A DNA stretch of 64,000 nt from Trichostrongylus colubriformis (Eukaryota; Nematoda; Chromadorea; Rhabditida; Trichostrongylidae): assembly GCA_963978905.1 (NCBI GenBank), contig CAXBUJ010000043.1, forward strand, positions 1 through 64,000. Reading direction: 5' to 3'. This document shows positions 1-55,592 of this stretch, in pieces. The notes beneath the pieces are model-generated. The model saw only the letters and a list, made by a program, of their open reading frames with translations. It searched no databases and had not been told where the DNA came from. Each line of letters opens with the position of its first letter. The stretch's first letter is position 1. Position numbers and translations under genes: made by a program.

Positions 1-1
1 G

Positions 2-800
2 ATTGAAGGATCTACGCAGGAGTCTTTATTAGCACTGTTTCGGCACGCCATTTTCTCTCTCTGCGATCGGGTTAGTCTGCTTGGATTGGCGATTCAAACA
101 GCTCTTATCTCCCAGCCAACCATTACCATTCGTCGTCTCATGGGTCGCCAGGACGTATCAGCCACATACCTGGGAAACGGCCTTACTCAAGTGCGTAAAT
201 GCATCCCGGTTCCAGCGGCGAGCTGGCACTTTATCGGTTTTAATACTACTTGTTATTCGCAGCCTATGATAGGCATCTCCCTTTCCTCCGGCAGCACTCA
301 CCAAGCGTTCCTTAATGTCGACACTGCCGTTATTGAAAATACTGCCCGGGAGGTACCCTGTCATTCAGTGACGTACTTCTACGTCTCCGACGGCATAAGG
401 ATCGCTCGCATCGACGCCTTTTCAGGCAAGACCTTTTCTGTCCCGCCCCACATGGTCAACACCTTTAACGCCCTCGCGACTCCCATTTGGCTTAACACCT
501 CTCTGCCCCTAACCATTTTCCACAACCTGGTCATCACAAATCTCAGCGAGATTGTGGATGGTCCCCGTCTGCAAGAATTTGGCAGGGCTCTGGCACAACA
601 ACGTATTGAGGAACATATTAAGGAACTGCAGAACAGAGAAACCCCGTTCACTAACCCTTCGCGGCCTCCATCCTTCTCAATCTGGTCACTGCTGGGCAAT
701 TGGACCCTGTTTGACATATGGGTCTCGCTGTGCGGATGCGTAGTTTCATTACGAGTGCTTCGTTACCTGCTGCGCGCGTACATTAAACGGGAGGGTCTTG
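2..800 (+). other. Envelope-glycoprotein-like segment fused in frame upstream of protease
   Basis: About 260 codons precede the protease. They contain isolated cysteines (codons at 203, 251 and 359), several N-glycosylation sequons (NTT, NTS, NLS, NWT), a charged helical stretch near 580-640, then a hydrophobic segment (FDIWVSLCGCVVSL) followed by basic residues. This reads as the C-terminal ectodomain, membrane anchor and cytoplasmic tail of a viral-type glycoprotein. I cannot assign it to a glycoprotein class. Alternatives are an unusual Gag or a spacer. No gag-type zinc knuckle is seen. The position N-terminal to protease is unusual, since env normally follows integrase. Confidence 0.45.
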
Positions 801-3800
801 GTCCGTTTCGTCCCGCGAGAGCAGAGGGGGGCCAGGGCGGTCTCCCAGCCGTAATTTCCTCCAACCCGGTAGCTTCAACCGCTACGCCCATGGGAGCACT
901 CCCCTTGCCCGAACTAGGAGTAACCCCACTGAGCAAACTGGTCATTGATGCACAGTCGGTTTGGCCGCCACGGGCTTCACTTGCACCGGCGAATGTTCTT
1001 GCTTTGGACACAGCACCCTTCTTTATCGCCCAAATCCCCGTCAGAGTCAATGATGTTGAGATGCTGGCGCTCATCGACACTGGTGCCGCCATCACCGTCA
1101 GTAGTAGTACTGTTACAGACCTGATAGGAGTATTTCGTCTGAACCCCTCTCGCATTCGGTCGGCGGTGGGTATGGCGGGGATCCCCGTCCCTATCGTAGG
1201 AACCGCCACTCTACGCATACGAGTCGGCTCCACTTCGTTAGCGCACATGGTGTACTTCACCAATGGGTCATGCATTCCTCGCCGCGTGGATAAATACAAT
1301 ATCATCTTCGGTAACGATCTCTTAGCCCGTCTGCCTGCGTGGCGCATTAACTACAGTCGCCGACGCTTTGCGGTGGGCCCGGACAGTGTCCCCATCCTTT
1401 CCCTTACGCCGCCGTTGTGCGGTGGGGAGTCGCCGGGTAAAGACATTAAAATCCGCGCGGCGCAAACGTCGGTTATACCGGCCCGGTCGGAGGCCTTCGT
1501 TTGCTGTTACATCGCGTCCCCTACAGCTCTCTCTGGCCCCGTAATGCTGACAACTCAATCGGCTGCTGTCTACAGTAAACACCTCTTCGTAGCGCCTGCC
1601 GTTGTCCAGGCAGAACGTGCTGTCTTACTGATCACGAACCCCTCGTCCCAGCCGGAGGTTTTGTACGCCAGACAACAAATTGGTACAGCGGTTCCCCTTA
1701 TCACAGACGACCACGGGAATTTGTCGGAGCTCTTCTTCCGCGTCAAGGAGCCTGTGGGTGATTCGTCTCCCACAGTAGCGGTCACGGACCGCGAAACCAC
1801 AGTTTCTCAGCCGACACTAAACGTTGATTTATCTCAGTGCGAAGTCACCGACGCCGAGAAAATTCAACTTCACCAATTATTTTTCGAATTTCGCGATCGC
1901 ATTTCGCAATCGAGTTATGATCTCGGATCGTATACCCACACCCTGGTCAATATTAAGACCACCACTAATGCCCCTCCGACCCGGTTTCGGCCCCCTCGCA
2001 TTCCTGTCAAGTTCCAGAAGGAGCTAGATGACCATATCAACAAGTTGCTCAAAGCAGGCCGCATCGTCGAAAGCGATACACCTTGGGTCCATAACACCGT
2101 TTTGGTAAAAAAGCGTGACGGTTCGCTTCGGATATGTTTGGATTTTCGCCCACTGAATGAAGTGACCATCCCAGACCATTACCCCCTTCCTCGCATAGAC
2201 GATCTACTCGTGAAAGTAGCTGGGAATAAGTACTACACCACGCTGGACCTCGCCTCAGGCTATATGCAGCTGCTTATGTCGCCCGAGAGCCAGGAAAAGT
2301 GCGGGTGGGCCACCCACCGCGGTATATATCAGTTCGTGTACCTGCCTTTCGGGCTACGTAATGCAGGAGCATATTTTTGCAGGGCTATGTCCCGCATCTT
2401 GTCAGGCCTTGAGGACACTTGCTTGGCGTACATTGACGATATCATCATCTTCAATAAGACCTTTGATGATCACTTGCGAGCTCTTCGAAATGTGTTTGAG
2501 CGGTTCAGGATTTTTAACATCAAAACCTCGGGTAAAAAGCTTACAGAAATCGCGCGATCCAGAATCACGTTTTTGGGTCACGAAATATCACACAGCACCT
2601 ATTGTCCAGCAGACCGCAATGTCCGAGCGCTAAAGGAGTTTCCGACACCGACAACAGCCAAAGAAGTTAAAAGATTTATTGGCATGGCCAATTTTTTTCG
2701 ACGTTTCATTCGCAATTTCGCAGGGTTAGCAGCCCCACTTTATGAACTCACGAAGGAAAACGCGAAGTTCGTATGGGGCGAACGTCAACAGGAGGCTTTT
2801 CTTGCATTACGTGATTGCCTCATGAGCAAGCCGTGCTTAGCTTATCCTCGCGATCGGGAATTCATCCTTTGTACGGACGGGAGTTCCTTGGCGGTCGGCG
2901 CAGGCCTCTTTCAAACGGCAACTGATGATAGTACTAGGTTAGTTGCAGTCGGCTATTTTAGTAAAGCGTTATCAGAGTCGCAAAGGCGCTGGAGCCCGAC
3001 GCACATAGAACTATTTGCGATGATAAGCGCCTTACGCTTTTTCCGAGCTACCATATACGGGAATCTCACGCGGATATTCTCTGACCATAAACCTTTGACC
3101 TTCCTTCTGAGACATAACAAGATCCACGATAATCTCGCCCGCTGGATCGTTGAGCTTCAGAGCTATAACATCACTATTGAGTATCTAAAAGGTTCCTCCA
3201 ATACAGTCGCCGATTGCCTTTCGCGAATCAGTCACCCTTCCTCTCAGTTCCAGGAGAACTCTCCTGAGAGTGATGATATTGTCGAGTTTCCGCGTTGCCT
3301 AACCGGCCTTCCTTTACCGGGACCCGAAAGTCCCCCGCTATTGCAGTACTCGCCTATCGCTATTCGCCCACATGATCTGGTGGTCGAGCAGCAGCAAGAC
3401 CAGCTATGCCGGAACGTCATTTACTTCCTTCACCATAAAGTCTTCAGCGCAGACGTGCCTGACGACAGTAAACCATCTTTGCTTCAAATCGCAGACCGAT
3501 GCCACATCAAACCAAACGGCTGTCTCTATTATCGACGCCCTTCTCCGGCCACCCCAGGTAACGCTCGGGATCAGATAGTAGTCCCCGAAAAGCTCAAGGA
3601 AGCGCTATTTCTGGCGTTTCATGAAAGCCCATCGGCCGGAGGACATTTCTTCTGGCGCAAAACCCTTGCAAAAATCTCGCGTAGGTACTATTGGCCGCAT
3701 ATGGCCGAGGACATTTACGCCCTATGTCGCACCTGCGACATTTGCCAACGGAAAAAGGCAGCCGCTCGCAACCGTGAAGACCTTCTACCAGTTGTCCCGG

Positions 3801-4852
3801 TGGCTATTTTCGATAAAGTGTACGTAGACCTTACTGGCCCTATGCATATTACAGAATCTGGTAATCGGTACATAATGGCCATGATCGACCACTTTTCAAA
3901 ATACGTGATCGCAGTGCCGCTTGCCGACTGCTCTTCGATAAGCATTGCACGCGCTCTGATGAACGAGTGCATCCTAAAATACGGGGTTATGACAGAACTC
4001 ATTTCCGACAATGCGTCTTATTTTCGGTCCGAAACGATCATGGAGCTGGGTAAACTACTTCGCGTGCACAGATATTTTTGTACACCCTACCACCACGAAG
4101 GAAATGGCGCTTGCGAACGTGTCTTTGCGACCTTTCAGCTCATGCTTCGATCGTACATTGGCACAGCTCAAACTGATTGGGATCAGTTTATTCCAGCATG
4201 TACTTTCATGTACAACACCTCCACCCATAATAGCACCTTGAATACCCCTTTTTTCTTGATGTTCGGGAGAGATCCCACTTTCAACGTAGATCTCATTATT
4301 CGCCACCACGAGGAGCGCCATGTTCCCTCCGACAGCACCGTGGAGCCCTACGTAGAGCGTCTATTACCGGTTCTCCATTCCGCTTGGCAATTCGCGTACC
4401 GCTTCAATATGAAACAACGTGAGCGCTATAAAGCACAATACGATAAAAGCCACTTATCACCATTGGAGGTTAAGGTTGGCGACAGGGTCTACCTCAGGAA
4501 CTTTACCCCTTCCCCCGGGCTATCCGCAAAACTGTGCATGCCGTGGCTTGGCCAGTTCCGGGTGATTTTAGTGGAGCACCCGCACGTGGTCATCGTCAGT
4601 ATTTCTTCTCCTGAGTCTCCCCCCAAAAAAGTTCATATGAACCAGGTCAAAAAATGCCATACTTTATCGGGACCAGTTTTTACGTCGCCCTGGCTTCCTG
4701 AACAAGAGGCGGTAGCGCTGGCTACCTGTCAGGCGGAAGATTACAGCCTCCCGGGCTACACACGGTCATCATCGCCTCCTAAAGACGCTAAGAAACAGGT
4801 CCCAACTCACCCTTACAACACTCGATTCAGAAAGCGAATGAACTCACTCTAA
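2..4852 (+). CDS. pol: Envelope-like / protease / RT / RNase H / integrase polyprotein (N-terminus outside window)
   Basis: The frame is open from the window edge, so a start near base 86 (a TTG) is not real. Bases 2-790 encode a glycoprotein-like segment with few cysteines, NxS/T sequons and a hydrophobic stretch near 712-775. A retropepsin follows with DTG at 1076-1084 and a flap-side FGNDLL motif near 1306-1323. RT has the LVKKRDGSLRICLDFR finger motif and YIDD at 2429-2440. RNase H has TDGSS near 2873-2887 and SDHKPL near 3080. Integrase has an HHCC zinc finger (about 3620-3750), catalytic Asp at 3827 and 4007 and Glu at 4115, giving exactly 35 intervening residues, and a GPY/F-like PWLGQF end. 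All catalytic residues are present, so the enzyme set looks competent. Gag is not seen; it must be upstream or absent. Confidence 0.9.
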   Translation: MEGSTQESLLALFRHAIFSLCDRVSLLGLAIQTALISQPTITIRRLMGRQDVSATYLGNGLTQVRKCIPVPAASWHFIGFNTTCYSQPMIGISLSSGSTHQAFLNVDTAVIENTAREVPCHSVTYFYVSDGIRIARIDAFSGKTFSVPPHMVNTFNALATPIWLNTSLPLTIFHNLVITNLSEIVDGPRLQEFGRALAQQRIEEHIKELQNRETPFTNPSRPPSFSIWSLLGNWTLFDIWVSLCGCVVSLRVLRYLLRAYIKREGLGPFRPARAEGGQGGLPAVISSNPVASTATPMGALPLPELGVTPLSKLVIDAQSVWPPRASLAPANVLALDTAPFFIAQIPVRVNDVEMLALIDTGAAITVSSSTVTDLIGVFRLNPSRIRSAVGMAGIPVPIVGTATLRIRVGSTSLAHMVYFTNGSCIPRRVDKYNIIFGNDLLARLPAWRINYSRRRFAVGPDSVPILSLTPPLCGGESPGKDIKIRAAQTSVIPARSEAFVCCYIASPTALSGPVMLTTQSAAVYSKHLFVAPAVVQAERAVLLITNPSSQPEVLYARQQIGTAVPLITDDHGNLSELFFRVKEPVGDSSPTVAVTDRETTVSQPTLNVDLSQCEVTDAEKIQLHQLFFEFRDRISQSSYDLGSYTHTLVNIKTTTNAPPTRFRPPRIPVKFQKELDDHINKLLKAGRIVESDTPWVHNTVLVKKRDGSLRICLDFRPLNEVTIPDHYPLPRIDDLLVKVAGNKYYTTLDLASGYMQLLMSPESQEKCGWATHRGIYQFVYLPFGLRNAGAYFCRAMSRILSGLEDTCLAYIDDIIIFNKTFDDHLRALRNVFERFRIFNIKTSGKKLTEIARSRITFLGHEISHSTYCPADRNVRALKEFPTPTTAKEVKRFIGMANFFRRFIRNFAGLAAPLYELTKENAKFVWGERQQEAFLALRDCLMSKPCLAYPRDREFILCTDGSSLAVGAGLFQTATDDSTRLVAVGYFSKALSESQRRWSPTHIELFAMISALRFFRATIYGNLTRIFSDHKPLTFLLRHNKIHDNLARWIVELQSYNITIEYLKGSSNTVADCLSRISHPSSQFQENSPESDDIVEFPRCLTGLPLPGPESPPLLQYSPIAIRPHDLVVEQQQDQLCRNVIYFLHHKVFSADVPDDSKPSLLQIADRCHIKPNGCLYYRRPSPATPGNARDQIVVPEKLKEALFLAFHESPSAGGHFFWRKTLAKISRRYYWPHMAEDIYALCRTCDICQRKKAAARNREDLLPVVPVAIFDKVYVDLTGPMHITESGNRYIMAMIDHFSKYVIAVPLADCSSISIARALMNECILKYGVMTELISDNASYFRSETIMELGKLLRVHRYFCTPYHHEGNGACERVFATFQLMLRSYIGTAQTDWDQFIPACTFMYNTSTHNSTLNTPFFLMFGRDPTFNVDLIIRHHEERHVPSDSTVEPYVERLLPVLHSAWQFAYRFNMKQRERYKAQYDKSHLSPLEVKVGDRVYLRNFTPSPGLSAKLCMPWLGQFRVILVEHPHVVIVSISSPESPPKKVHMNQVKKCHTLSGPVFTSPWLPEQEAVALATCQAEDYSLPGYTRSSSPPKDAKKQVPTHPYNTRFRKRMNSL

Positions 4853-5004
4853 ACGATACGCAAAAAGTTCCTTTTGTACATTACCTCCCCGCCATATCTC
4901 GACCACATTCATAGTTTTCCAGTGGACTCGATTTTTGGCTCCATATTGATTCCGTCGGAAGCCGCAAGGTTCACTGATGTGCCTCATTTCAGAGAGTGTT
5001 CGCC
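4853..5004 (+). promoter_or_regulatory. Inter-ORF spacer with a candidate splice acceptor
   Basis: The 152 bases between the pol stop and the helicase ATG contain a nematode-style acceptor (CATTTCAG, ending 4992) 12 bases upstream of the ATG at 5005. The two ORFs are in different frames, so ribosomal readthrough alone would not express the helicase. The acceptor suggests cis-splicing from a leader donor, as for retroviral env mRNAs, or SL trans-splicing. This is inference from one site. Confidence 0.45.
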
Positions 5005-8000
5005 ATGTCCGACCATGATCATGTGGAGGCCACTGAGGTCGATGGCGGTGATCAGTCAACAACAACGGAATCAGGTACCGGAGTGAGCTCCTTTTTACAA
5101 CCTCTTGGTCATACCTTGGCCGACTCAACAGTTAGTGTGCCTCTGTTATCTTCAGGTCATACTCTGGCCGATTCCCCGATGACGGGCACGTCCGATTCCA
5201 CGCACACCAACTCTCTTTTGAAAACACCAGATTCGCATTCGGGCACTAGTGACCAGGATACTTCACGAGGTTCGTCACTGTTGGCAGAATCCCCGAGCAA
5301 TGGTGAGGACTGGGCCCCGGCCCCTTCCCCAATGGATACCACGGAGTACGGCTCACCACAACCCCTTCCTGGTCCTCAGCCGCTACCATCGTTGGGCACC
5401 GTAGCATCGGCGGCAGCTCCCGCTATTCATCGGCCGTGCTCTCCACCATTATGGGCCACAGCCAGCGCCGCTTCTCGCCGACGATCGCACCATCTGCGGT
5501 TCTTCAGCGTCGCTTCGGCCTCGCAACCCCTACGAGGTGCCCGCTCTTTTGGTCGGGGTACTCGAAACGCTCCACAGCCAGCCCTTGGTTCTTCTCGGAC
5601 CTCTAATGCGCGGACCCGTGGAGGACGATCGTCAGGTATAAGAGGACCATCGAGACAGGAGTTCAGCTCTTCGAGGAAAGAAGACTGGCGTGACTGGAAC
5701 CTTGATCTTCCGGAGGTAACCCCCGAAGGGTACACACATTACCTGGCACACCTGCACCCATGGGCCCCGTTAGTCCGCCCACGTCGACCCCGGTATGCGA
5801 ATATACCGGATGACTGTGTCACAAGTGAGCTGCCAGAGGATAAGTATCGGCCGATTCCCCCAGCCGCCTATGAGGCCGCCCGTTGGGTCAGGTCACTCTT
5901 CCCTAATTTCATCAAAGACCCGCCTAGCCCCTCTAATAAAATCCCTATCATGGAGCTGCAGACACTAGAGGCCGCGATTCACTTCCGGGAAGAGTCTCTG
6001 TCAGTAATTCATGACACATTGAGCGGTCGCTATCAGGAACCCGTGCGTGAGAACCCACAAACCCCGCTCAAGTTTTATTCTTCGACACTGGCCCCTCGTC
6101 CCAGCAACGTCTCCCAGCCGGTGCTATATCAAGTTGTCGCGGTAGGATACGGGAACGGCGTGTTACTAGAAGCTAAAGATTTCTTTGTCGTGGGGCCAGA
6201 CAGGCGTGATCTGCATTGCATCGTTTTAGACCAGTACGCCGTCGACGTAACCACGAACATGCGAGGTTTCGACCGGTCGTTGGTATCAGTTCAGGACTTG
6301 GTTTGGATTTATTCGGTAACACCTACACGAGCTGCACTCCAAAATCCCGCTTCTATCCTGGATCGTTCCCGTATCCCCAGGGCCACGGCCATGGACCCTT
6401 CATCCGTCTATTTTTTCCGGGCGGATCAGTTCGCATTTGTGACACCCCACGTGCAGCACCAAACCAGCTTTGGCATGGTGGTCCATCTCGTCACCCGCGC
6501 GGATCGTGTTACGAAATTTCTAGCGGTTTTCGAAGGAGCTCCGGAGGCCGCAGTCATCACTCCCTCCTTGTGCGACCGCGACCTTGAACCGGTCTATAAA
6601 TATTCGCTTATTCGCGCCGAGACCCGAGTCAACACGTCCTACGCTATGCGATTTTCGGAACCACCAGCCTCACAGCAAGCACGGGATGAGCTATGCCAGT
6701 TAGTACGTCGCTTCTTGCCTCTCAACTCACGAGAAGGAGTACTTCCCCTACGCGTAATGAATCTGCGCCCGGAGGATAAGGACTGGTTAACGGACCGCGT
6801 CAATAGCTTCACCTCCTATGCCACGGACACTGCACGAGCCAAACATAGAATGGGTCAACTCTTCAATGTCGCGTGTTCGACATTAGCCGCCTTAAACACC
6901 ATGTTTGACGACACAGCAGTTCATTGGGTTACCTGCACCCAGCCTCAGGGTACCATGTGTCCAGTCCGTCTTGACTTCATTTTGGAAGACATGGCACAAG
7001 AAGCTGGATGGAACAGGGGCCGACTCCTGGATTTCTGGCTTATGGGAGCGGATCACACTATAAAAATGCGCGTGGAGTCGGTGTTCTTCAACATGGACAG
7101 TAAACAACTGTCGATTCGGATCTCGGGGTTCACCTGGAACCATGAAGGGCTAACTAACCTCATAGCGAAACACGGACGTCATCTTCGGGGTGAACGAATA
7201 GTCGATGGCTATGTTCGTCTGGCTAAACCCCCCAAATCGGCAAGCCCGGCTAATGAGGCTATCTCCAGGATGTTACATATTGTCACACAAGTAGAAACCG
7301 GCACAAAGGGGCATCGCATTCTCGACCTCGTCTACCGTAATCCACCAGCCTTACCAGCAGCCCCTCGAGGTTCGCAAGCTCGATTTTCCATTCCGGATAC
7401 CTTCCGGCTCCGAAATCAGTGTATCTCTCTGACGTCAGATCAACGCACTTCACTGGAACTCGGGTTAGCAAACCACCCGATCGCGGAAATCCAAGCCGCG
7501 TTCGGTACCGGAAAGACCGTTCTGGGTGCGATTATAGCAGGACTCCTCGTTCAACACCAAAAAGGCCCCATAATTGTTACGGCGACAACCAATAATGCGG
7601 TCGCACATTTTGCATCAACGATGTTGGCGCTCGAGGAGTTCCGACAACTCCGACTTTTGCGATATATCTCGGAATCCGCCTTTCTGGACGAATCGCCTTC
7701 AACCACCGTTGATATTCATGAAGTTTTGAAATCACTTGGAGAAGAATTTGCTAGCACGTTGCGAGTCCACGACCGTGATCGGTGCGCCCGTTTCCGCAAA
7801 GGGCGACTGCTTTATGAACGCTACGCTAGGGATCCAGCCCACTCCATGGATATGACGGAGACGGAAATTGAAGAGTACATCTTAGCTGAGAAGGATGTGT
7901 CGGAATGCGTGAAAAAAGTAGTAAACATAATGTTCGATGTCCGCCCTCCAGATGTGCTCCTTTTGACAACTGCATCGCTTTTAAACACAACGGCAAAAGG

Positions 8001-8862
8001 CGGCATCTTCAGAAACCACCTAGCTGACCGTAAGATTATCATCATTGATGAGGCGTCACAGGTGCCCGAGCCTATCTTGGCATCGTTCATCACCCTATTC
8101 CCGGAGGCGCGCCAACTTTACATTGGAGATGTACATCAGATGCGTCCTTATGTGAAATGCCCCCACGAGGCGAATCCAGCACTGTTCGGCGGTCAAAGTG
8201 TAATGTCCATTCTCGCGCGGTCTCCCGCGGTACCAAAGGCGGCGCTAGTGACGACGTTCAGATGCCATCCCGCGCTTATTGAGTTGCCAAATATCCTCTC
8301 GTACGGAGGATCATTAATAAGCGGAGTGACAGCGAGCCAACGGCGCCTACTTCTCGACCGCGTAAGGTTCCCAAAAGCTGACCTACCGTTCGCTTTTATC
8401 GACATCAAGGGCACTTCCATGCAAGCACCCACCCACTCCTATCTCAATGAAGAAGAAGCCAGGACTTGCCTTACGCTGTTGGATCATCTGTTAGGATGCG
8501 GGCTCTTGCCGAGCCAATTATGTGTGGTCACCTTTTATCGAGAACAATTTCGACTGCTAGTCGATTTCGCTTCCGAACGGCAAGTCGAGATCGCGACAGT
8601 CGATTCGATTCAAGGTCGAGAAACGGAAGTAATCATCCTTCTGACGACTCGCACAAGTTTGGAGCCTGAGACCGCAGGATTTATAGACGATCTGCTACGT
8701 TTGAACGTTGCTATCACCCGTTCGAGGCAGGGTCAATTTATCCTAGGGCACGTGCCAACTCTGCGACCCCTACCCCACTGGGGACAAATTATAAGTTGGG
8801 CTGAAGGATCGGGAGCCATCGTCCCCTCGACCCAGCTGCGGGACCTCTTTTCTGCTCCTTGA
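5005..8862 (+). CDS. Retroelement-encoded UPF1-like superfamily 1 helicase (1285 aa)
   Basis: I chose the ATG at 5005; the frame is also open at a GTG at 4996. Residues 1-230 are Ser/Pro/Gly/Arg-rich and probably disordered, with a repeated GHTLADS and RGG-like basic patches. Residues about 230-800 form a large region I cannot assign, ending in a part that resembles UPF1-family accessory domains. The helicase core is complete: Q-motif-like SDQR, Walker A FGTGKT near residue 834, Walker B DEAS near 1015, motif III GDVHQ near 1042, an FRCHP motif, motif V DSIQGRE near 1200, and motif VI NVAITRSR near 1234. UPF1/DNA2-NAM7 proteins are ATP-driven 5'-3' RNA or DNA translocases. The ORF is intronless over 1286 codons and lies between integrase and the candidate 3' LTR, so it belongs to the element rather than the host. 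A role in reverse transcription, RNP remodelling or evasion of nonsense-mediated decay is speculation. Confidence 0.88.
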   Translation: MSDHDHVEATEVDGGDQSTTTESGTGVSSFLQPLGHTLADSTVSVPLLSSGHTLADSPMTGTSDSTHTNSLLKTPDSHSGTSDQDTSRGSSLLAESPSNGEDWAPAPSPMDTTEYGSPQPLPGPQPLPSLGTVASAAAPAIHRPCSPPLWATASAASRRRSHHLRFFSVASASQPLRGARSFGRGTRNAPQPALGSSRTSNARTRGGRSSGIRGPSRQEFSSSRKEDWRDWNLDLPEVTPEGYTHYLAHLHPWAPLVRPRRPRYANIPDDCVTSELPEDKYRPIPPAAYEAARWVRSLFPNFIKDPPSPSNKIPIMELQTLEAAIHFREESLSVIHDTLSGRYQEPVRENPQTPLKFYSSTLAPRPSNVSQPVLYQVVAVGYGNGVLLEAKDFFVVGPDRRDLHCIVLDQYAVDVTTNMRGFDRSLVSVQDLVWIYSVTPTRAALQNPASILDRSRIPRATAMDPSSVYFFRADQFAFVTPHVQHQTSFGMVVHLVTRADRVTKFLAVFEGAPEAAVITPSLCDRDLEPVYKYSLIRAETRVNTSYAMRFSEPPASQQARDELCQLVRRFLPLNSREGVLPLRVMNLRPEDKDWLTDRVNSFTSYATDTARAKHRMGQLFNVACSTLAALNTMFDDTAVHWVTCTQPQGTMCPVRLDFILEDMAQEAGWNRGRLLDFWLMGADHTIKMRVESVFFNMDSKQLSIRISGFTWNHEGLTNLIAKHGRHLRGERIVDGYVRLAKPPKSASPANEAISRMLHIVTQVETGTKGHRILDLVYRNPPALPAAPRGSQARFSIPDTFRLRNQCISLTSDQRTSLELGLANHPIAEIQAAFGTGKTVLGAIIAGLLVQHQKGPIIVTATTNNAVAHFASTMLALEEFRQLRLLRYISESAFLDESPSTTVDIHEVLKSLGEEFASTLRVHDRDRCARFRKGRLLYERYARDPAHSMDMTETEIEEYILAEKDVSECVKKVVNIMFDVRPPDVLLLTTASLLNTTAKGGIFRNHLADRKIIIIDEASQVPEPILASFITLFPEARQLYIGDVHQMRPYVKCPHEANPALFGGQSVMSILARSPAVPKAALVTTFRCHPALIELPNILSYGGSLISGVTASQRRLLLDRVRFPKADLPFAFIDIKGTSMQAPTHSYLNEEEARTCLTLLDHLLGCGLLPSQLCVVTFYREQFRLLVDFASERQVEIATVDSIQGRETEVIILLTTRTSLEPETAGFIDDLLRLNVAITRSRQGQFILGHVPTLRPLPHWGQIISWAEGSGAIVPSTQLRDLFSAP

Positions 8863-8914
8863 GAAAAAAAAACAACAAAAAAAAATTAAAAAAAAAAGGA
8901 ATCACTGCAACTTT
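8863..8914 (+). promoter_or_regulatory. A-rich/polypurine tract before candidate 3' LTR
   Basis: Directly after the helicase stop is a run of A-rich sequence ending in AAAAAAAGGAATC. In LTR elements a purine tract at this place primes plus-strand DNA synthesis. The tract is only weakly G-containing, so its exact extent is uncertain. Confidence 0.45.
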
Positions 8915-9362
8915 TGTAAGCCATCCTTCTCCTTACTTCCTCCCACTCTCCCACCCATCCAAGACTAACCCCCGCCCTCGCCGGTACCTGCTCTGCTACA
9001 CCGTCGCTCTCCGCTCAACAGCCGCAGGTTTCTACTCCAGTTTTGTTACACAACAGAGGTAAGTACTCGAGTCCGGGACGGACTTTTTGCGATAGGGGAG
9101 GTGTAAGTGATGAAAAAGTTTTCTTAAGGCTCAAATCGATTCATTGTGTATTTCTCAGCTATTCTAGATGCCGAGAGCCGATATGGCGGAGGGGAATGGC
9201 AGCAAGGAAGGGGCAATCATGAAGGAGCGGCACCGACGCCCGGCGGGGTTGGATAGCGACTCCGGCTGTTGTTGCATCTCTTGTATATTCTCGAATCATT
9301 CTTGGCTTCTGCACAATAAATCGTTTTGTTATGCTTCTTCGCGCACGCTGCCTTTGTCAACA
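8915..9362 (+). repeat. Candidate 3' LTR (TGT...ACA, about 448 bp)
   Basis: The stretch starts TGTAAG just after the purine tract, ends GTCAACA, and carries AATAAA at 9315-9320 about 45 bases before the proposed end, as expected for R/U5. It also contains a strong splice donor (GAGGTAAGT, intron base 9060) and a TTTCTCAG acceptor near 9158. The matching 5' LTR is outside the window, so the boundaries cannot be verified here. A small ORF at 9168-9470 overlaps it and is probably not a gene. Confidence 0.4.
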
Positions 9363-10186
9363 AATGCCAGCCTGACTTCATTCGATATTCCGTCCTCATC
9401 CGAACACATTTCTGATATTTCATTTCTTATGTGTCAGTGTGGATGTGGTAAAATGCCGCTTATCACTTAACCGCCCATCTAGGAGTGTAGAGGAGCGTCT
9501 AGATGAGCTCTTCGATTATTTCTCCAAGTGGTAACTGATAATTAACACTCACCAAGTAGGCAACAATTGGAGCAAGTATGAACATACTTCGCAATGGATA
9601 TGCATACCTGGAAGGTCAGACATAGCTTTTTAGGCGCAGCAGTTATTCAGGTAACGACAGAGCATTGGATGATCTTCAGAAGAGACGGCTGTATCAATAT
9701 GTGAGGACTGTCTGCTTCAAGTGATGTCACTATTCCAAGTTTTGAATGACTGAATGGTGACTGGGCGTAATAAATCACCGTACACATGCTTCATTATTGC
9801 AGACATAAGTATCATTCACTACATACATATTTTCATGTTATATTACTCCAAAATGCAGCTGAAACAGTCTTGAATGGATGCAAACGCAAACAACCTCAGT
9901 GCTGACGGAGCAATGTTAGGAATTTGATTTCGGGGATTTAGATTTCGTAAGAACTCACAGTATTTTTAAACTTTGATATGCCAATTTGAAGGTGTGTGTA
10001 AAAGGAAGAGACCAAATTGATGGGATGGTCTTCTGCAGATGGGGTCACTGATATACATAATAGAATCCCTTACATAGAGTAATCAGGATCCATCTCCATA
10101 AAGTTGTAACTATCCATTTGGGAGAGTCTAGAAGCAGTCAGCTAAATGACCTATATTTATGCTGCATTGTGCTCAAGCTTAGGAAA

Positions 10187-16888: not shown

Positions 16889-17416
16889 ATTTCGTCAATA
16901 GTCGAAGCCGTCCCGTTGATCGCATCAAGGTATGTTGCTTTTTTTTCAGAATTTGTTATGTACATTGAATATTTTTCATATATAGTCGTATAGTTTTCAT
17001 TATGCTTTATGTTTAAATGTTTCTAATGCTTATTTCATGTCCTTTTTTTAGGTATCGTTCATGGTCGAAGTTCGGACGCGCGCCGCATCAAGGTATGTTG
17101 CTTTTTTTCAGAATTTGTTATGTATATTGAATATTTTTCATATATAGTCGTATAGTTTCCATTATGCTTTATGTTTAAATGTTTCTAATGCTCATTTCAT
17201 GTCCTTTTTTCAGGTATTCTTCATCGTGAAATCCAAACGCCTCCCGTAGGAAGGTATGTTGCTTTTTTTCAGATCTTGCAATTGTTCTTTGACTGTTTTT
17301 CATAATTAGTCGTAATATTTACGTTGTACTTAATGTTTCAATGTCTTTAATGCTTATTTCATGTACTTTTTTTCAGGTATTTTTTGGTAGTGAAGTCCGA
17401 CGCCGCCCGCAGGAAG
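16889..17416 (+). repeat. Tandem array A: four splice-site-flanked cassettes
   Basis: Four 40-41-base blocks at 16889-16929, 17052-17092, 17214-17253 and 17377-17416 recur every 162-163 bases. Each is preceded by a T-tract ending CAG or TAG and followed by GTATGTTGC. Block lengths are not multiples of three and stops occur, so they are unlikely to be a coding micro-exon series. They lie inside the hAT element. Confidence 0.85.
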
Positions 17417-17562
17417 GTATGTTGCTTTTTTTTCAGAAAATGAGGTCTGTTGTTTCCTTTTCGTTCTTCATGTTTAATATTGTTCACTTATTCTTATGTT
17501 ACTCTTTTTCTTACATTTTCGCGTTTTGCTTTACCTATATATGTTTGATTTTGCTTTTTCAG

Positions 17563-17950
17563 GTCCGTTGAAGAAGTGGCCGATTAAATCGAGGGAAGGC
17601 GTTCAGGAAACGAGGTTTGTTGTTTTCTTTTCATTCTTCATGTTTAATATTGTTCACTCATTCTTGTAATGCTCTTTTTATACATTTTCGTCTTTTACTT
17701 TATCTATATATGTTTGGTTTTGCTTTTTCAGGTCCGTTGAGGAAGTGGCCGATTAAATCGAGGGAAGGCGTTCAGGAAACGAGGTTTGTTGTTTTCTTTT
17801 TATTCTTCATGTTTAATATTGTTCACTCATTCTTGTAATGCTCTTTTTATACATTTTCGTCTTTTACTTTATCTATATATGTTTGGTTTTGCTTTTTTTA
17901 GGTCCGTTGAAGAAGTACCCGAGTAAAACGAGAGAAGTTTCAGAAAGAAA
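17563..17950 (+). repeat. Tandem array B: three splice-site-flanked cassettes
   Basis: Blocks at 17563-17614, 17732-17783 and 17902 to about 17950 begin GTCCGTTGA and repeat with period 169-170. Each follows a CTTTTTCAG-like acceptor, and the first two end GAG before GTTTGTTG. The first two are almost identical and the third is diverged. This array directly follows array A in the hAT element. Confidence 0.85.
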
Positions 17951-21285: not shown

Positions 21286-23496
21286 CGGGAGTGTGCTGCA
21301 AGTGTTCCGGTGCCTAGTGTGGGGTCCAAACTGAAACTGAAGAGCCACCAGACATCAGCGAACATACCATCATGCAAAGATTGTTGCAAATTGGATGACC
21401 CTATCTTCAGACAGCACCTCCAAATATCTCTGTCAAACAGGTTCGCTGTTCTGACAACATCCGAAAACGCTGACGATGCGACTGATCAATTTGCTGCGGT
21501 TGTTACTGAGTCTGCCATATCCACGTGTCCACTTCGCCGGCATCGCACCTAAGCATGGATTTCTGATGAAACTCCTGATCTGGTGGATCAACGAAAACAA
21601 TGCAAACTGACTGATTTACAAAGATACCGGGAGCTTCATCGTGTCGTACGTAGTCGTCTCAGAATGGAAAGGAAGTAATACTGGTACAGTGTCGCAGCAG
21701 AACTTGAGAATCAGGCCAACCGCAGAGATTATCGCCGACTATATGCAACTCTTCGCCGTTTTGGAGGGAAGATTAGAAGCGTAGATGACAACATCAAGAA
21801 AAGTGATGGAAGCTACGTACGATCGCGTACAGAGCGACTTGGCAGGTGGAAAGAGTATTTTTGCCAGCTCTACAACCATCCCATACCAGATGAATTGCCG
21901 CCAAATTCTTCTCACAATCAATCGTTTGATCGTATTTCCGTGGAACCTCCTGTTATCGGTGAAATTGAAACTGCGGTGAATTAGTTGAAGCGTGGGAAAT
22001 CAGCGGGAAATGTTGGTGTGACAGCTGAAGCCTTGGGAGCTGGTGGTGACGTTCTCCGACAACGATTGCACTCACTGCTACATCTTGTTTGGACTTGCGA
22101 AAGTATACCTACTTCGTGGAAGCAGGCGATCGTCATACCAATTCACAAGAAAGGAGATACTCACGAATGCAAGAACTATCGCGGAATTAGCTTGTTATCT
22201 ATTATTGGGAAGGTCTTCATGAAAATCATACTCGGGCAAATCCAGCGACGACGAGAACAGATGAGTTGGGAGGAACAAGCGGGATTTCGTCCCAATCGTG
22301 GGTGTTCTGACCAAATTTTCACCCTGACGCAAGTCCTAGAGGAACGTGTTCGCTGTGAGAAGCGTCTCATCATCGTGTTCATTGACTTCGCTTCTGCATT
22401 CGACAGCGTCAACCGGGTGGCTCTTTGGAAAACGCTTGCTGCAGAAGGCATTCCCGAAAAGCTGATTCGACTACTACGCAACGCATACGAAAACTCCCGT
22501 AGCAGAGTTCGCATAAAGGGAGAATTGTCGGAAGATTTCGTGGTCAACACTGGTGTTCGTCAAGGATGCGTGTTGTCACCAGTACTCTTCAATACTGTCA
22601 TTGACTCCATCATGAAATCCGCTCAAGTGAATCAAACAGGCACACAGTTTGGAGAAGGACAATTCATCACGGATCTCATGTATGCTGACGACGTCGCCAT
22701 GTTTGCCAATGATGATACTGAAGCTTGTGAAATAGTGTACAGAATTGAAAGAGCTGCAAGGCCGTATGGATTAGTCATCAATACTGATAAAACGAAGGTT
22801 CTCACATCTGACGGAAGTGCTGCACGAGTGCATCTGAATGGAAATGTTTTTGAACAATTCTCACATTTCAAGTATCTGGGCTCGACTGTGGAGGAGAAGA
22901 AAGTGGCGTCATCAACAGAAGTTGTGTATCGGATTGGCTCAGCATCGAAAGTTTTTGGCACACTTTCCTGGTGTGTATGGAAGAAGCATAACATAACGAT
23001 ACACTTAAAAATGAAGATCTTTCGCTCCCTGGTGCTACCATTACTTCTTTACGGCTCTGAAACTTGGGCATTACTGCGATCTGACATCCGAAAATTGGAA
23101 TCCTTTCAAATGAGATGCCTTAGACGTATACTCGGTGTATCACTTCGCGACCGACTGAAAAACGGAGTGATAAGGCAACGATGCTGTCGCCAAACAACCG
23201 TCGAAATGGAAATCCAACAACGACGGCTTCGTTGGTTTGGCCATGTTTGCAGAATGCAGCCGGAACGATATCCCCATAAGACCTTGTGTAGAATTCGGCC
23301 GCATGACTGGAAGATTCAGCGCGGAGCACCGAAGAAAACATAGTTGAAACAGATATCAAAAGGTCTTTCTAATTGCAGACTTAGTATTCAGCAAGCAAAG
23401 ATAGTGGCCATGGACAGATTGCAGTGGAGGAGAACTGTGAAGACCTTGCGCACTCCAGTGGTATCTACAGCAGCACTCAATGCAAGCTAAGGAGGA

Positions 23497-23820: not shown

Positions 23821-24126
23821 ATGTGCCTTTAAACAGAGTTTGATCATTGACACTGCCATTAACAGGTGCGCATCCATATTATCTCTCCACCGCAATGATT
23901 GTTACGTGTTAAGGGTGTGACTCAACTACACTTCTGAGCTAATCGCTTTTCCGAAAATTTATTTGAAATAAAAGGACCTCAGATATAACAGTACTGCCAC
24001 CAGCAAATTTTAAAATCGTGCTGAACGCCGCTACATAGCATCGTCGTCATTGCTTCATTCTGCGAATGCTGTAAGCAGAACATAGGTTAAGGAGGCAGTT
24101 TTTGTAACAGAACTCAGAATCAACTG

Positions 24127-24799
24127 TCATAATCCACCATTACCATAGGGGCCATAACCTTGCATGAATTGCTCGAAGATAAACTTCAACGTACGGAATA
24201 CCTAAAAGGCTAATTGACTGCAGAGATAAACGAACACTGGCATCAAGGCTAAGATATACCTGAAGATGGATGAGAAAAAAATTGGAATTTAAAAATCCGC
24301 TCACCTCAGGATTGAGTTTCTTAAGTTCCCTTTTTCTTTGCGTGATTTCGTCAGGAGTCAAGTTTTTGTCTTCAACTACTCGGAAAAACTGCTTAAACGC
24401 TTGTGGAAGGAAGTCTATAACGTGCTTAACTTCCTTCTTTATTGCATTTCTAAACTCCATCCTGTCATCTTCGATTGCCTCTACTTTGTCCTGAAATGTA
24501 AGCGGGTGAAGGATGCTGCCTGGAACTGCTCATATTTTATTCACAAACCCTTCACTCACCCAAATACCATTGTCTTCAGCCCATCGTTTGATTTTGTTCT
24601 CTTGCTCACCGATTGTTAATGTTTTGTTGGATATAATTCTCCAGTAGTCTCTTCGAGCTTCTGTACGAACAAAATATGCTAGCTCTCGTGGCAATGGAGG
24701 AGGCCCGTAGTGAACTTTAGGGGCTCTGGGAAGCGGAGCTCCAACGGAGCGCTGAGCTGCTACAGCAGCAGAAACGAGCAGTATGATCTCGAGCTTCAT
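24127..24799 (-). CDS. SXP/RAL-2 (DUF148) secreted protein, left-arm copy
   Basis: Three exons on the minus strand: 24799-24560, 24490-24305 and 24201-24127, all joined in phase 0 and giving 166 residues. It is the mirror of the copy at 63115-63787, where the domains are described. Encoded sequence appears identical in the two copies. SXP/RAL-2 proteins are nematode-specific, usually secreted and immunogenic, and of unresolved biochemical function. Confidence 0.88.
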
Positions 24800-24916
24800 T
24801 GCGAATGTCTAAACAATTGTTTGCTAAATTGAAGTTTGCACAGCTTTCAAAATGATACCATTATAATAAAATAAATAAAATTCACGAGAAAACGGAAACT
24901 AGAGAGAAAGTAGTTA

Positions 24917-25063
24917 CTGAAAGAGCAAAAAGGGATTCACTGTGCAGTGCGAGAGACTGCTGTGCTGCCCTGATGATCGGTGTGCTCTTTATATCTCTCT
25001 TTTCTGGTGGTGCTTTTGCCCTTTGCCGCAGATAGATTGTAGATGTTAGTTCATCTGCTTCTT
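24917..25063 (-). promoter_or_regulatory. Upstream region of SXP/RAL-2 gene, left-arm copy
   Basis: Mirror of 62851-62997: a TATAAAG (minus strand, about 24987-24993), a TTTCAG acceptor about 120 bases from the ATG, and an upstream module resembling one near 26384-26441. Confidence 0.5.
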
Positions 25064-28000
25064 GTGGAGTACATATTTATACTCATTCGAAAAGTCGTGT
25101 CATTTTCGAACCATTTCTCCTGAATCAGTGTGTTACTGTGTACTTCAGGAGGAGCATAAAAACGGAGAATTGCGATATTTTATCATTCGGCTAATGTTTC
25201 GGTGAATCGCCTTTTTTGAAGCTTGTAGGCTGAAACATATGAGTTATACAAAACGTCGAGTATCCTTTCAAAAATTACAAAAGAATGCTAAAAGTGAAAC
25301 AATCCACAGCGGCATAATTAAACCAAAGGACCTTATGAAAATTTAGAGCTGAAGCTTGGCATCTTGTGCTGGAATTTTCACGGTGGTGGGTTTATATGTG
25401 TTTCTAAGCCTTTAAGGTTAGGTCAGATTACTGATGGTAGCCCTCCAGAGATATTACTATTTAAAACTATGCTAACGGTTATCGACTCATGCTGACTGCC
25501 GTCTGTAAGGCTCAGCACAAGTGTATCATTGATCGTGTCTAAAAAAAATGCTGAGATCAAGAGAGAATCGTAAATGGAGTGCAATAAAAAAATATGTTTC
25601 ACTATAATTAAAAACGTAAAAACTTCAAACTATGTGACTCATTCAAATCACTATTTGATCTGCTGTATACTCTGTCGTATTTCAAGGCCAAAGTTGGCTC
25701 CATAGATCTATTGCGAATTATGTTATATTGTGTTAGTTGATATCAGGTCATTACTGACAAATACGAAGTATGCGTGCATTGAAAGCAAGAAATTCAACGC
25801 TGCACCCGTGAGACCCAGCCACATTCATACATCTTGTAGAAACTCCTAACGAAAAAGGCGCATTCGTCAGCGAAACCGCGGAAGTCAATTGCCCAATATG
25901 TTAGACCATACATAACCATATTCTATAAAAATTAAGATTCATTGCGAAATAACGCAAAAAACAAGGGTTTTTGTTATTTTTCCAGCACTTTTGTGCTACC
26001 CTTGTGTATATTTAAAAATCGCGTTACTTCTTTCGATAAATTTCCTGCCAATCGCTCCACCTGCTTTTCTTTACTCGATACTAATACAATAATTAATTAT
26101 ATTTTCATCATCACCATAAATTAAACGCTAAGGAAGTCTTCCTTCATATCTGTCGACTTGTCTACAGTGCCCTGTTAGTTTATATCTTTTTTCGTTTGTT
26201 TGGAATGTAGTTCTTATCTCACGTGGTGTAATGGTGGATATCAGAATCTTGGAAAATGGTAGATGGGTTGGTACGAGTCTGAAACTGTGTGGTGAAATCT
26301 GTTTTTTGTTTGCGGTGATCTTGGAGCGTTGATATTCATGGTGTAATGTAATGTGTAAAGGAAACATTGATGACGGGAAAAGTGAGCTTTTGCCTTTTTG
26401 CTCTTCGCCGTGAATAGAATACAGCTGTTAGTTCACCTGCTTTCGATAGGAAACATCATTATTTCGAAAGGTAATGTAATGTCTGAATCCGTGTTTAGTT
26501 ATCCTTTGTCATCTGCGTTTTTCTCGAATCTCATAGAGCGACAGGACACTTGTGGAATCTAAGAAATTTGTGACGGCTGCATCATTTGTGCTTGATATAA
26601 AGTGATCAGTTGAGCACAGTACTGCGCGAACTTATTGATGACATTGATCCACCGATATCAAAGAAGCCCATATCGCATGAATTTACATTGTGATGAGCGC
26701 AGTACTGATCGCTTGCTCAACTGGTCTCCATACAAAAGCCTGTCACCACGGAATTTCACGTAGTTCAACAAACAGTCTTAGGGTTTTATATTTTTTCTAC
26801 TGGATAACGAAGGACGTTCAGTCACCGAGTTGGGAAGTAGTGATAGAATCTGGCCATCCGAGCTCCCCATAGCAGCAAAGCTGATCCTTTCACATATATA
26901 TGTGCCACACTCAAATTTTCATCCTTATCATTCCATTATGAGCAGAGCTGAACTCGGTGACGGGTCCGCTAAAGTCGCGCCGTGGTCTTCGTGAACGTGT
27001 GCACCTTCGTGCAGGGTTGTCACAGCATGCTCACGACGCCACCGTCAGCCGCGTAGCATGGCAAAGTCGATGCGCTATAGGTGGTCCCAGCAGACAGGTA
27101 CCACAGATGAAATTCACGCCGATCATTAATTAGCAAATCGATCTATTCGATTATAGATGTTTCTTCGATTGGAGCAAGGTATCCATTGCCAGTCCTATCT
27201 TGTGAAAAGTTGAAATTCAGCAAGAGCTGAATGCCTTTGAAGTGTTGGAATGTGTTGCAAAACCACCCACAAAATGGGCATGGAATTTGCTTTTGGAGAT
27301 CAGTAGACGTACGGTTGTGTTCTTATTCATGTCCACTAATCATAATGGGATCAGTAAGTGTCAGAGGTGATACATCTGTCGCACTTTTGAGTTATTATTA
27401 CAAGTTATTACAGTATTAGAAAGAATAGCTGTACCCATGTTTATTCTCTTGTAGATGCTCATTGGTGGCGCAGCCAGCTAAGGGTCACAGATGATGGACC
27501 TAAGGAGAGTGTAGAAAGGAGGCACTCACATGCAGCACATGAGGTCACTTCATAAGCATTTCTTTTTATCATTCATAGGTGTCATGCGCATAAGTTATTT
27601 GATTGAATTGATAAGATCCTATTTTCGCTGTTTCGGATAAAAATTATGATAGACTCAGGTCTGAGATGGAGTGAACACGCGCAGAGGATCGAAAGAATGA
27701 TGGCTGACCTTCTTCTGTGGGCACGACTGGTCAGCGATGTGCTACTGCTGGTGTTTATCCATGGTTCATAGTGAATTCATTGTTGAAAATGCACTGTGCG
27801 AATCTGCTTTAGTGGTGAGTATTCCAGTGAAAAATGGTGATTTGGTCAAAGAGGAAGAAGAAGGCCACACGCGAGGAGGCATTCAGCTACCCATGGGTGT
27901 GATTGTAGGGAAGAATTAGCGAATAAATTTTTCGTTTCTTGTCTTTGTTTTCAATCTTTTGTTTTCAAGGATACACTATACTTGACGGCCAAATGAGCTC

Positions 28001-28438
28001 TGGCTGACAAATGGCAAAATACTGATACAGTGGAAATCTGGGGCTAGTAGTAGAAGTGTATGCATAGAAGCCTATATGTAAGCTATGTTCCAAATTTGAG
28101 CTAAAACCGTTCAGTATGAAGGGAGTTATGGGTCCATGAACTTGTTGATGGCTATGCTGGAGCAGTGCCGCGCGGGTTCATGGCCGTCCTGCATGCGTGC
28201 GACGAGGCGAGCGCAGCCGCTACGTACGCGGGGATACCCCTTGTCAGTAGCTACCACGGCTCCAAGGCGATTGCTTGAGGGATTCCGTTGAAGAACAGAA
28301 CAAAGCTGAAAACACAGGTTTTTTGGATGCTCCATATCTTCGTTGGTGCTGAACTTCATAAGCGATTGGTGACACCATTGAATTCAGAGTCCTCGATTCC
28401 ATGACTATGCAAAATTTCGTGCAAATAAGTTGTCTGGT
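25064..28438. other. Left-arm intergenic DNA, no supported gene
   Basis: AT-rich sequence with short ORFs only. It contains the 160-base dispersed repeat at 26836-26995 and the second promoter-like module near 26384-26441. Two open stretches, plus 27737-27919 and minus 28126-28359, have no recognisable domain, and I do not call them genes. Confidence 0.5.
26836..26995 (+). repeat. Dispersed repeat, copy 2
   Basis: Closely matches 10187-10345 on the same strand, with scattered substitutions. Its mirror is 60919-61078. Confidence 0.8.
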
Positions 28439-32320: not shown

Positions 32321-32583
32321 CTATTGATACTTGATACTTGATACTTTATTACATGACAAGCATGTACAAAAGAAATTGCCAGCAAACATCTAGCATTGAA
32401 CCACAAGTAAAGTAGAGAAGACGAACATTATCCCATGCAGTTCACAATTTGTAAAACAGCGAAATCTGTAGCAACATATGGCGAAGAACAAAATGGTCAA
32501 AGAAAAGAGATTGACGAAAAAGAGAAGAAAGAGGTGGAAATGGCGAAATTTACTAGAGCATCATCCGGTTTCTTAAAGTACTA

Positions 32584-34299: not shown

Positions 34300-34331
34300 A
34301 AGTTAGAAAAAGGCATTGGGCCTCTTAGATT

Positions 34332-53581: not shown

Positions 53582-53613
53582 AATCTAAGAGGCCCAATGC
53601 CTTTTTCTAACTT

Positions 53614-55329: not shown

Positions 55330-55592
55330 TAGTACTTTAAGAAACCGGATGATGCTCTAGTAAATTTCGCCATTTCCACCTCTTTCTTCTCTTTTTCGTC
55401 AATCTCTTTTCTTTGACCATTTTGTTCTTCGCCATATGTTGCTACAGATTTCGCTGTTTTACAAATTGTGAACTGCATGGGATAATGTTCGTCTTCTCTA
55501 CTTTACTTGTGGTTCAATGCTAGATGTTTGCTGGCAATTTCTTTTGTACATGCTTGTCATGTAATAAAGTATCAAGTATCAAGTATCAATAG

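What the first reader, a model, noticed from the sequence alone, without database searches (positions are those of the whole stretch)
1..9362. Ty3-like retroelement carrying a complete UPF1-type helicase ORF
A 1285-residue SF1 helicase with all motifs (GTGKT, DEAS, GDVHQ, DSIQGRE, NVAITRSR) sits after integrase and before a candidate LTR, intronless and undamaged. Autonomous LTR retroelements known to me encode gag, pol and sometimes env, not a UPF1-like helicase. An acquired helicase could act on genomic RNA, on reverse transcription, or against nonsense-mediated decay of a long multi-ORF RNA. The first two statements are sequence and family knowledge; the role is inference.
Basis: partly seen in the sequence, partly recalled or inferred. 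Interest (0 to 1): 0.92.

Follow-up and report, generated by a model that had tools for sequence, protein, structure and literature searches.

The report
Nematode Ty3 elements with UPF1-like helicase
In a nematode genome, retrovirus-like mobile elements carry, besides their usual genes, an intact-looking relative of the cell's RNA-surveillance helicase UPF1, kept by selection, which suggests the element uses its own RNA motor during its life cycle.

Summary
Confirmed. The helicase ORF (5005-8862) is a gene of an LTR element. The same genome holds 5 loci with the integrase-helicase junction at 98-100% (window included); in the 4 whose two ends could be read, pol and helicase lie between LTRs identical to each other, with 4-bp target duplications. 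The window copy begins at base 1 of a 68-kb contig, so its 5' part is missing. A second family (4 loci; helicase about 60% identical) also has LTR pairs around it. Among the five copies the helicase is under purifying selection like pol (64 synonymous, 24 nonsynonymous variable codons; pN/pS 0.13, pol 0.12). Its core is nearest to UPF1 among solved structures, without a detected UPF1 zinc domain. Unexpectedly, a class III-like env lies between gag and protease. Likely role, inferred: an accessory RNA translocase, made from a spliced mRNA, acting on the element's own RNA. Other enzymes are known in LTR elements; ten paper searches listed no UPF1-like helicase. One remoter pol locus showed no helicase; host-helicase phylogeny could not be run.

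The parts
2..4852 (+). ORF A (5' part cut by contig start): env C-terminal part, protease, RT, RNase H, integrase in one frame
   Evidence: in the C1 copy the frame continues upstream through env into gag
2..790 (+). C-terminal part of env-like class III glycoprotein with one transmembrane-like segment (about 704-760) and N-glycosylation motifs
   Evidence: Monjiviricetes_fusion E=5.5e-4, 18.5 bits, below cut-off, on window:89-391; 29.2 bits, above the cut-off of 27, on the longer C1 piece; hydropathy and N-glyc motifs
1034..1249 (+). aspartic protease (DTGA at residue 359)
   Evidence: aspartyl protease family matches, all below cut-off; motif position
2105..2587 (+). reverse transcriptase (YIDD)
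   Evidence: RVT_1 E=8.8e-24; motif position
2774..3166 (+). RNase H
   Evidence: RT_RNaseH E=1.5e-21 and RT_RNaseH_2 E=4e-21
3581..4093 (+). integrase (H2C2 zinc domain and rve core)
   Evidence: Integrase_H2C2 E=4.7e-19, rve E=2.4e-8
4987..4992 (+). TTTCAG splice-acceptor-like site 12 nt upstream of the helicase ATG
   Evidence: present in 4 of 5 family-A copies (C7 has TTTTAG); a TTTCAG also precedes the helicase in 4 of 4 family-B loci; same hexamer as the verified acceptor of the Cer1 3' ORF (PMC10309623)
5005..8862 (+). helicase ORF, 1285 aa: S/T/P-rich N-terminus (1-235), conserved middle (236-800), UPF1-like SF1 core (801-1285)
   Evidence: purifying selection
7429..8751 (+). SF1 helicase core (AAA_11 and AAA_12)
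   Evidence: AAA_12 E=1.4e-36, AAA_11 E=1.4e-8; PDB best UPF1
9094..9101 (+). polypurine tract AGGGGAGG next to LTR
   Evidence: GGGGAGG also precedes the 3' LTR in 4 of 4 family-B loci
9102..9355 (+). 3' LTR (reader gave 9362)
   Evidence: matches 5' and 3' LTRs of 4 of 4 other copies
9315..9320 (+). AATAAA polyadenylation signal in LTR

Best explanation
Shown: a young, multi-copy Ty3-type LTR retroelement of a nematode, with the order LTR - gag - env-like glycoprotein - protease - RT - RNase H - integrase - UPF1-like SF1 helicase - PPT - LTR, in which the helicase is an element gene kept by purifying selection. Inferred: the helicase sits where env normally sits and is translated from a spliced (cis or trans) subgenomic mRNA through the TTTCAG acceptor upstream of its ATG. 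Inferred: the protein is an ATP-driven RNA translocase that acts on the element's own unspliced RNA, which carries about 4.5 kb after the pol stop and so would look like a decay target to host UPF1. With a UPF1-like core but no detected CH (UPF2-binding) domain, it most likely loads on that RNA, displaces or competes with host surveillance helicases, and so stabilises genomic RNA for translation and packaging. My probability for this RNA-protection role is about 0.35; the confidence below is for what the thing is.
For: LTR pairs flank pol and helicase in 4 of 4 testable family-A copies, with 0 differences between LTRs and 4-bp TSDs, and in 4 of 4 family-B loci (TSDs readable in 3 of 4). Five copies of the integrase-helicase junction at 98-100%. 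The helicase frame is open over its full length in 4 of 5 A copies (C7 is shortened). pN/pS is 0.13 for the helicase against 0.12 for pol, binomial p 8.4e-21 and 7.9e-21. Between families A and B the helicase is 62% identical and its motifs persist (motif VI with one residue changed). Only 152 nt separate the pol stop from the helicase ATG, and no LTR copy lies there. GC3 is near that of pol (0.52-0.54 against 0.56) and above that of four other window ORFs (0.44-0.47). A TTTCAG acceptor is present in 8 of 9 loci. UPF1 is the best solved relative.
Against: No biochemical, RNA or protein data. The RNA-protection role rests on homology and layout only. No splice donor common to the leaders was found (the C5 leader was read for only 320 nt), so the spliced mRNA is not shown. 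The middle domain (236-800), about as conserved as the core, has no known relative and could set quite another function. One remote pol locus lacks a detectable helicase (L021). Several copies have broken frames: C3 of family A in ORF A, C5 near the end of pol and C7 in the helicase, C5 and C6 of family B.
Confidence: 0.85

Rival explanations
1. The helicase serves reverse transcription or packaging: it travels with the particle and unwinds structured genomic RNA or strips RNA from DNA.
For: Selection as strong as on pol; the ORF is in the same element in two families. An S/T/P-rich N-terminus could be a tether (composition; the role is a guess).
Against: The ORF is separate from gag-pol, so packaging would need its own signal; LTR elements in general reverse-transcribe without their own helicase (general knowledge).
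Confidence: 0.25
2. Counter-defence against small-RNA silencing: a decoy of host SF1 helicases (MOV10/ERI-6/7, ZNFX-1 type).
For: Host SF1 helicases of these kinds act in nematode small-RNA pathways (recalled; a paper title on the ERI-6/7 helicase in siRNA amplification is in the reference list seen); for LINE helicases silencing suppression was proposed (PMC5563155).
Against: The core is closer to UPF1 (146 bits) than to ZNFX1 (52 bits); MOV10 was not among the PDB hits and could not be compared.
Confidence: 0.2
3. Regulator of nuclear export of unspliced RNA, functionally parallel to CERV of Cer1.
For: Same position (pol to 3' LTR) and same TTTCAG acceptor type as the CERV exon.
Against: CERV has no obvious homology outside Caenorhabditis according to its paper; no sequence comparison with CERV was made here.
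Confidence: 0.15
4. Passenger: a host helicase retrocopy trapped between LTRs without use.
For: LTR elements do carry captured host genes (PMC7264820 passages).
Against: pN/pS 0.13 over 88 variable codons in 5 copies, and retention in a second family at 60-62%.
Confidence: 0.02
5. A separate host gene next to a truncated element.
For: Only the window copy, whose 5' end is cut, would allow it.
Against: LTR pairs with TSDs enclose pol and helicase elsewhere.
Confidence: 0.01

Closest known systems
Cer1 (C. elegans Ty3 element) with CERV ORF (PMC10309623, passages read)
   Same: Ty3-type nematode element with an extra ORF between pol and 3' LTR, made from a spliced mRNA with a TTTCAG acceptor
   Different: CERV is an RNA-export factor without obvious homology outside Caenorhabditis; env between gag and pol was not mentioned in the passages read
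Bdelloid rotifer Vesta/Juno LTR elements with enzymatic ORF3 (PMC5408684, passages read)
   Same: env-position ORF encoding an enzyme of RNA/DNA metabolism (DEDDy exonuclease) or a GDSL esterase
   Different: exonuclease and esterase, not a helicase; there no significant departure from neutrality within genomes is reported, here strong purifying selection
Phalaenopsis Ty3/Gypsy elements with AlkB m6A demethylase (PMC9289625, abstract and passages read)
   Same: Ty3 element with an additional ORF acting on RNA
   Different: demethylase, plant element
TRAS/Jockey LINEs with viral SF1 helicase (PMC5563155, passages read)
   Same: retroelement carrying an SF1 helicase
   Different: non-LTR elements; helicase from virga-like RNA viruses inside an existing ORF, not of the UPF1 family
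Host UPF1/NAM7 (SMG-2)
   Same: SF1 core motifs and best PDB match
   Different: no UPF1 zinc-domain match; conserved middle domain without known relative; intronless and LTR-borne
BEL/Pao elements with chuvirus glycoprotein, 'Anakin' (PMC7642597, abstract read); hookworm Atlas (PMC9094657, passages read)
   Same: LTR element with env taken from negative-strand RNA viruses
   Different: BEL/Pao, not Ty3; Atlas env is class II; here env lies between gag and protease

Membership tests
Ty3/Metaviridae LTR retroelement | PR-RT-RNaseH-IN order | tested here: met
   (protease below its cut-offs)
Ty3/Metaviridae LTR retroelement | LTR pair, PPT, PBS, target duplication | tested here: met
   4 of 4 testable family-A copies: LTRs identical, 4-bp TSDs read by eye; TGGTAGCAGCGAG at the inner edge of the 5' LTR read as PBS, its tRNA not identified
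Ty3/Metaviridae LTR retroelement | gag with capsid and zinc knuckle | tested here: met
   C1 copy: Retrotrans_gag 26.8 bits (cut-off 24.1) and zf-CCHC 28 bits (20.8); Ty3_capsid 21.1 bits is below its cut-off of 29.1
Ty3/Metaviridae LTR retroelement | RT groups with Ty3 clade in a tree | not tested
UPF1 (SMG-2) proper | SF1 helicase motifs I-VI | tested here: met
   motif I begins A instead of G, allowed by the P-loop pattern (recalled)
UPF1 (SMG-2) proper | N-terminal CH zinc domain | tested here: not met
   no such match in the whole protein (E<=1) or its pieces (E<=10 asked, though HMMER's filters drop most above 0.1); no PDB match to UPF1 upstream of the core
UPF1 (SMG-2) proper | orthology by tree | not testable with these tools
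   protein search of the genome did not complete; homologue database off
IGHMBP2-family helicase (TIGR00376) | score above family cut-off 348.9 bits | tested here: not met
   116.9 bits
Viral-type SF1H carried by LINEs | Viral_helicase1 domain above its cut-off | tested here: not met
   18.6 bits against 21
LTR elements with enzymatic ORF3 | intact enzyme ORF between pol and 3' LTR | tested here: met
   enzymatic activity itself not tested
Retrovirus/errantivirus gene order | env after pol | tested here: not met
   env match lies between gag zinc knuckle and protease

The most novel reading that the evidence does not exclude
A separate lineage of nematode reverse-transcribing elements with the order gag-env-pol in one polyprotein plus their own RNA-surveillance-type helicase: an LTR retroelement that carries a rewired UPF1 to shield its RNA from host decay, and an enveloped one if the env is functional.
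Probability: 0.35. Interest if true: 0.9.

Novelty: new variant of a known kind. Interest (0 to 1): 0.8.

Why it matters
To my knowledge LTR elements and retroviruses borrow helicases from the host rather than encode them. A Ty3 element that encodes a selected UPF1-like helicase makes a testable case for how retroelement RNA meets nonsense-mediated decay. It also offers a natural, stripped-down UPF1-type core, and shows an env-like gene inside the gag-pol frame in two element families.

Tried and rejected
Chance ORF, separate host gene and passenger were rejected. Single-sequence structure predictions of the env part and of the helicase middle domain were too poor to use (pLDDT 38 and 33), so no fold search was made. 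Scans of viral contigs with helicase, pol, env part and helicase alignment confirmed no relatives; of prokaryote genome contigs none. Pfam and PDB gave no family for the helicase middle domain. RSCU correlation between ORFs was weak (0.18-0.42 within the element, up to 0.31 with an unrelated ORF) and is not used; GC3 is. No common splice donor was found in the leaders. 20 remoter pol places that I asked for and 5 of them again could not be read, so how many lack the helicase is unknown; for L021 no helicase match was found. Six weak LTR matches (L038-L043) were listed but not analysed.
Full report
What is there. Window 1-9355 is roughly the 3' three quarters of an LTR retroelement. [quoted passage not shown] ORF B starts at ATG 5005, ends at 8862 and encodes 1285 residues with an SF1 helicase core at its C-terminus (AAA_12 E=1.4e-36, AAA_11 E=1.4e-8). 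A purine tract (9094-9101) and an LTR (9102-9355) with AATAAA follow. In 300 random Markov sequences of 9,400 nt the longest stop-free run was 381 codons, so neither ORF is chance. G+C falls from 0.505 (9200-9399) to 0.405 (9400-9599) just after the LTR.

Host. The window is bases 1-64000 of a 68,363-bp contig (C45) in a 331-Mb assembly of 52 contigs. Two adjacent ORFs at 24143-24808 match the SXP/RAL-2 family Ani s 5-like domain (E about 4e-6 each, slightly under the cut-off), a nematode family as far as I recall.

Is the helicase part of the element? A DNA search of the genome with window 4000-6000, which spans the integrase end and the helicase start, gave 47 matches (40 of 46 candidates scored, so a lower bound); 5 are full-length at 98-100% identity: the window itself, C5, C1, C3 and C7. 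Reading both ends of the other four shows an LTR at each end. The two LTRs of each copy are identical (255/255, 259/259, 254/254, 255/255). Flanks read by eye give 4-bp duplications (CTAC, AAAC, ACGC, AAAC for C5, C1, C3, C7), and TGGTAGCAGCGAG, a primer-site-like sequence, stands at the inner edge of the 5' LTR. From the LTR positions these copies are about 13.0, 13.0, 9.6 and 10.9 kb (C1, C3, C5, C7); C5 and C7 lack part of the 5' internal region. A genome search with the LTR gave 21 matches. Nine of them are the window LTR and the four pairs. Four are two further pairs with large internal deletions (C3 43.63 Mb and C1 42.80 Mb); both keep the 3' end of the helicase before the 3' LTR. Two single LTRs (C5 41.05 Mb, C7 40.96 Mb) showed no other element sequence in the 1.5 and 3.5 kb read. 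Six weaker partial matches were not analysed. Among those read, no copy of this family has the LTR directly after integrase.

A second family. Four loci (C5 21.17 Mb, C7 39.61 Mb, C3 1.40 Mb, C6 20.55 Mb) have pol at about 79% protein identity (shown for three of the four: L006, L007, L008) and a helicase at 60-61% by tblastn (all four). They too are bounded by LTR pairs: 354/354 (C7), 357/359 (C3; the two mismatches fall in the flank that the alignment took in) and 353/353 (C6), and 99.3% for the C5 locus, where the match also runs into a further duplicated stretch. Flanks allow 4-bp duplications in three of four; the C5 locus was not resolved. Frames are broken in the C5 and C6 loci. A further locus (L022, C5 27.50 Mb) has pol at 69% (56% in its env part) and helicase at 71%, with an internal deletion between them. 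Another (L021) has pol at 56% and no helicase match in the roughly 5.4 kb read downstream of it. So the helicase is older than the split of at least two families, and may be missing in remoter ones.

Is it used? The five family-A copies differ at 88 simple variable codons in the helicase, 64 synonymous and 24 nonsynonymous, where about three quarters would be nonsynonymous without selection (pN/pS 0.13, binomial p 8.4e-21). Pol gives 61 and 24 (pN/pS 0.12, p 7.9e-21). The S/T/P-rich N-terminus, the middle and the core each show it (0.09, 0.17, 0.10). Pairwise values run from 0.06 to 0.23 for the helicase and 0.09 to 0.17 for pol (10 pairs each). The binomial test treats variable codons as independent changes; only codons with two states and one change were counted. 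Four of five copies have the full-length helicase frame; C7 is shortened. Elsewhere frames are not all whole: ORF A is split in the C3 copy and pol changes frame near its end in C5. Between families dN is 0.29 with dS saturated; the middle region (residues 241-540, 70% identity; 541-790, 63%) is about as conserved as the core (67%) and the N-terminus is not (41%). Identical LTRs within copies say that the insertions are recent, while the copies differ from one another at about 1 to 4.5% of synonymous sites, so the selection acted while the element was replicating.

What kind of helicase? By sequence the best solved relatives are human UPF1 and yeast NAM7 (146 and 121-123 bits with a five-sequence profile), then DNA2 (84), an entry named 5'-3' RNA helicase-like protein (80), Sen1 (75), SMUBP-2 (71), ZNFX1 (52) and Aquarius (31); the single-sequence order is similar. 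The printed alignments to UPF1 cover motif I and everything from motif II to motif VI. No UPF1 zinc domain was found, the NCBI IGHMBP2 model is far below its cut-off, and the viral helicase family is below its cut-off. Residues 236-800 have no known relative in Pfam or, by sequence, in the PDB. It is thus a UPF1-like core in a new context, not shown to be UPF1 itself. A proper tree with host helicases could not be made.

How is it expressed? The pol stop and the helicase ATG are 152 nt apart. TTTCAG lies 12 nt before the ATG; it is present in 4 of 5 A copies (C7 has TTTTAG), and a T-rich TTTCAG site precedes the helicase of 4 of 4 B loci. In Cer1 of C. elegans the 3' ORF in the same place is made from a spliced mRNA through a verified TTTCAG acceptor (PMC10309623, passages). 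I infer a spliced or trans-spliced helicase mRNA here; no donor shared by the leaders was found, so this is not shown.

The env surprise. In the C1 copy the frame of ORF A runs on upstream. It begins with gag (Retrotrans_gag and CCHC zinc knuckle above cut-off) and continues into a Cys-rich segment that matches the Monjiviricetes fusion glycoprotein at 29.2 bits (cut-off 27, E=3e-7) when the 556-residue piece is scanned; shorter pieces stay below the cut-off, and a rhabdovirus fusion-domain match next to it is weak (E 0.02-0.1). A signal-like hydrophobic stretch precedes it and a membrane-anchor-like stretch follows; the window's first 260 codons or so are its C-terminal part. Family B has the same order at 56% env identity in 4 of 4 loci, in one open frame in C7 and C3. 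The order is therefore gag-env-pro-pol in one frame, which departs from the gag-pol-env order stated for simple retroviruses (PMC10309623).

Mechanism. Shown: element membership, recent movement, selection, intact ATPase motifs. Inferred: a translocase acting on the element's own RNA. The unspliced RNA has about 4.5 kb behind the pol stop, which host UPF1 would read as a long 3' UTR (established NMD knowledge, recalled); PMC10309623 notes that most retroviruses need ways to avoid NMD. A UPF1-like motor without a detected UPF2-binding domain could occupy that RNA or compete with host UPF1. Rivals are reverse transcription or packaging, counter-silencing, and RNA export; the data do not separate them.

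Literature. The listings that I saw named no UPF1-like helicase in an LTR element; some were short cuts of long lists (20 of 1,179, 10 of 318, 12 of 43, 10 of 199, 12 of 14, 8 of 29), and subscription journals are mostly not held. Closest precedents read in part: enzymatic ORF3s in bdelloid LTR elements (PMC5408684), AlkB in orchid Ty3 elements (PMC9289625), viral SF1 helicases in insect LINEs (PMC5563155), CERV in Cer1 (PMC10309623), chuvirus glycoproteins in BEL/Pao (PMC7642597, abstract) and a phlebovirus-like env in a hookworm element (PMC9094657). Hence a new variant of a known kind.

Noticed in passing
L056:1-1668 (minus strand) and window 2-790: Env-like class III glycoprotein encoded between gag and protease in the same frame in the C1 copy, with the same order in 4 of 4 family-B loci; an unusual gene order in its own right.
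   Followed up: partly
window 23914-34799 and 53114-64000: Near-perfect (99-100%) inverted repeat with arms of about 10.9 kb and about 18.3 kb between; the right arm reaches the window end. Recent palindromic duplication or assembly artefact of a small contig.
   Followed up: no
window 50322-51683 +: gag-like ORF with DUF1759 (E=7e-15), BEL/Pao-like by recall, inside the spacer of the inverted repeat.
   Followed up: no
window 21985-23343 + and 32584-34299 -: Two other reverse transcriptase ORFs (RVT_1), non-LTR type by recall; the second has a near-identical inverted copy at 53614-55329.
   Followed up: no
window 16904-17937: Array of short direct repeats (about 162 and 169 nt) with TTTTTTCAG-like stretches, like duplicated exon-intron units.
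   Followed up: no
L022 (C5 27.49 Mb): Further relative whose helicase (71%) is more alike than its pol (69%), reversed relative to family B (60% and 79%); hints at recombination or uneven rates.
   Followed up: no
L017/L059 (C5 21.17 Mb): Family-B locus where the LTR match is followed by a further 1.1-kb stretch duplicated at 99.6%; structure unresolved.
   Followed up: no
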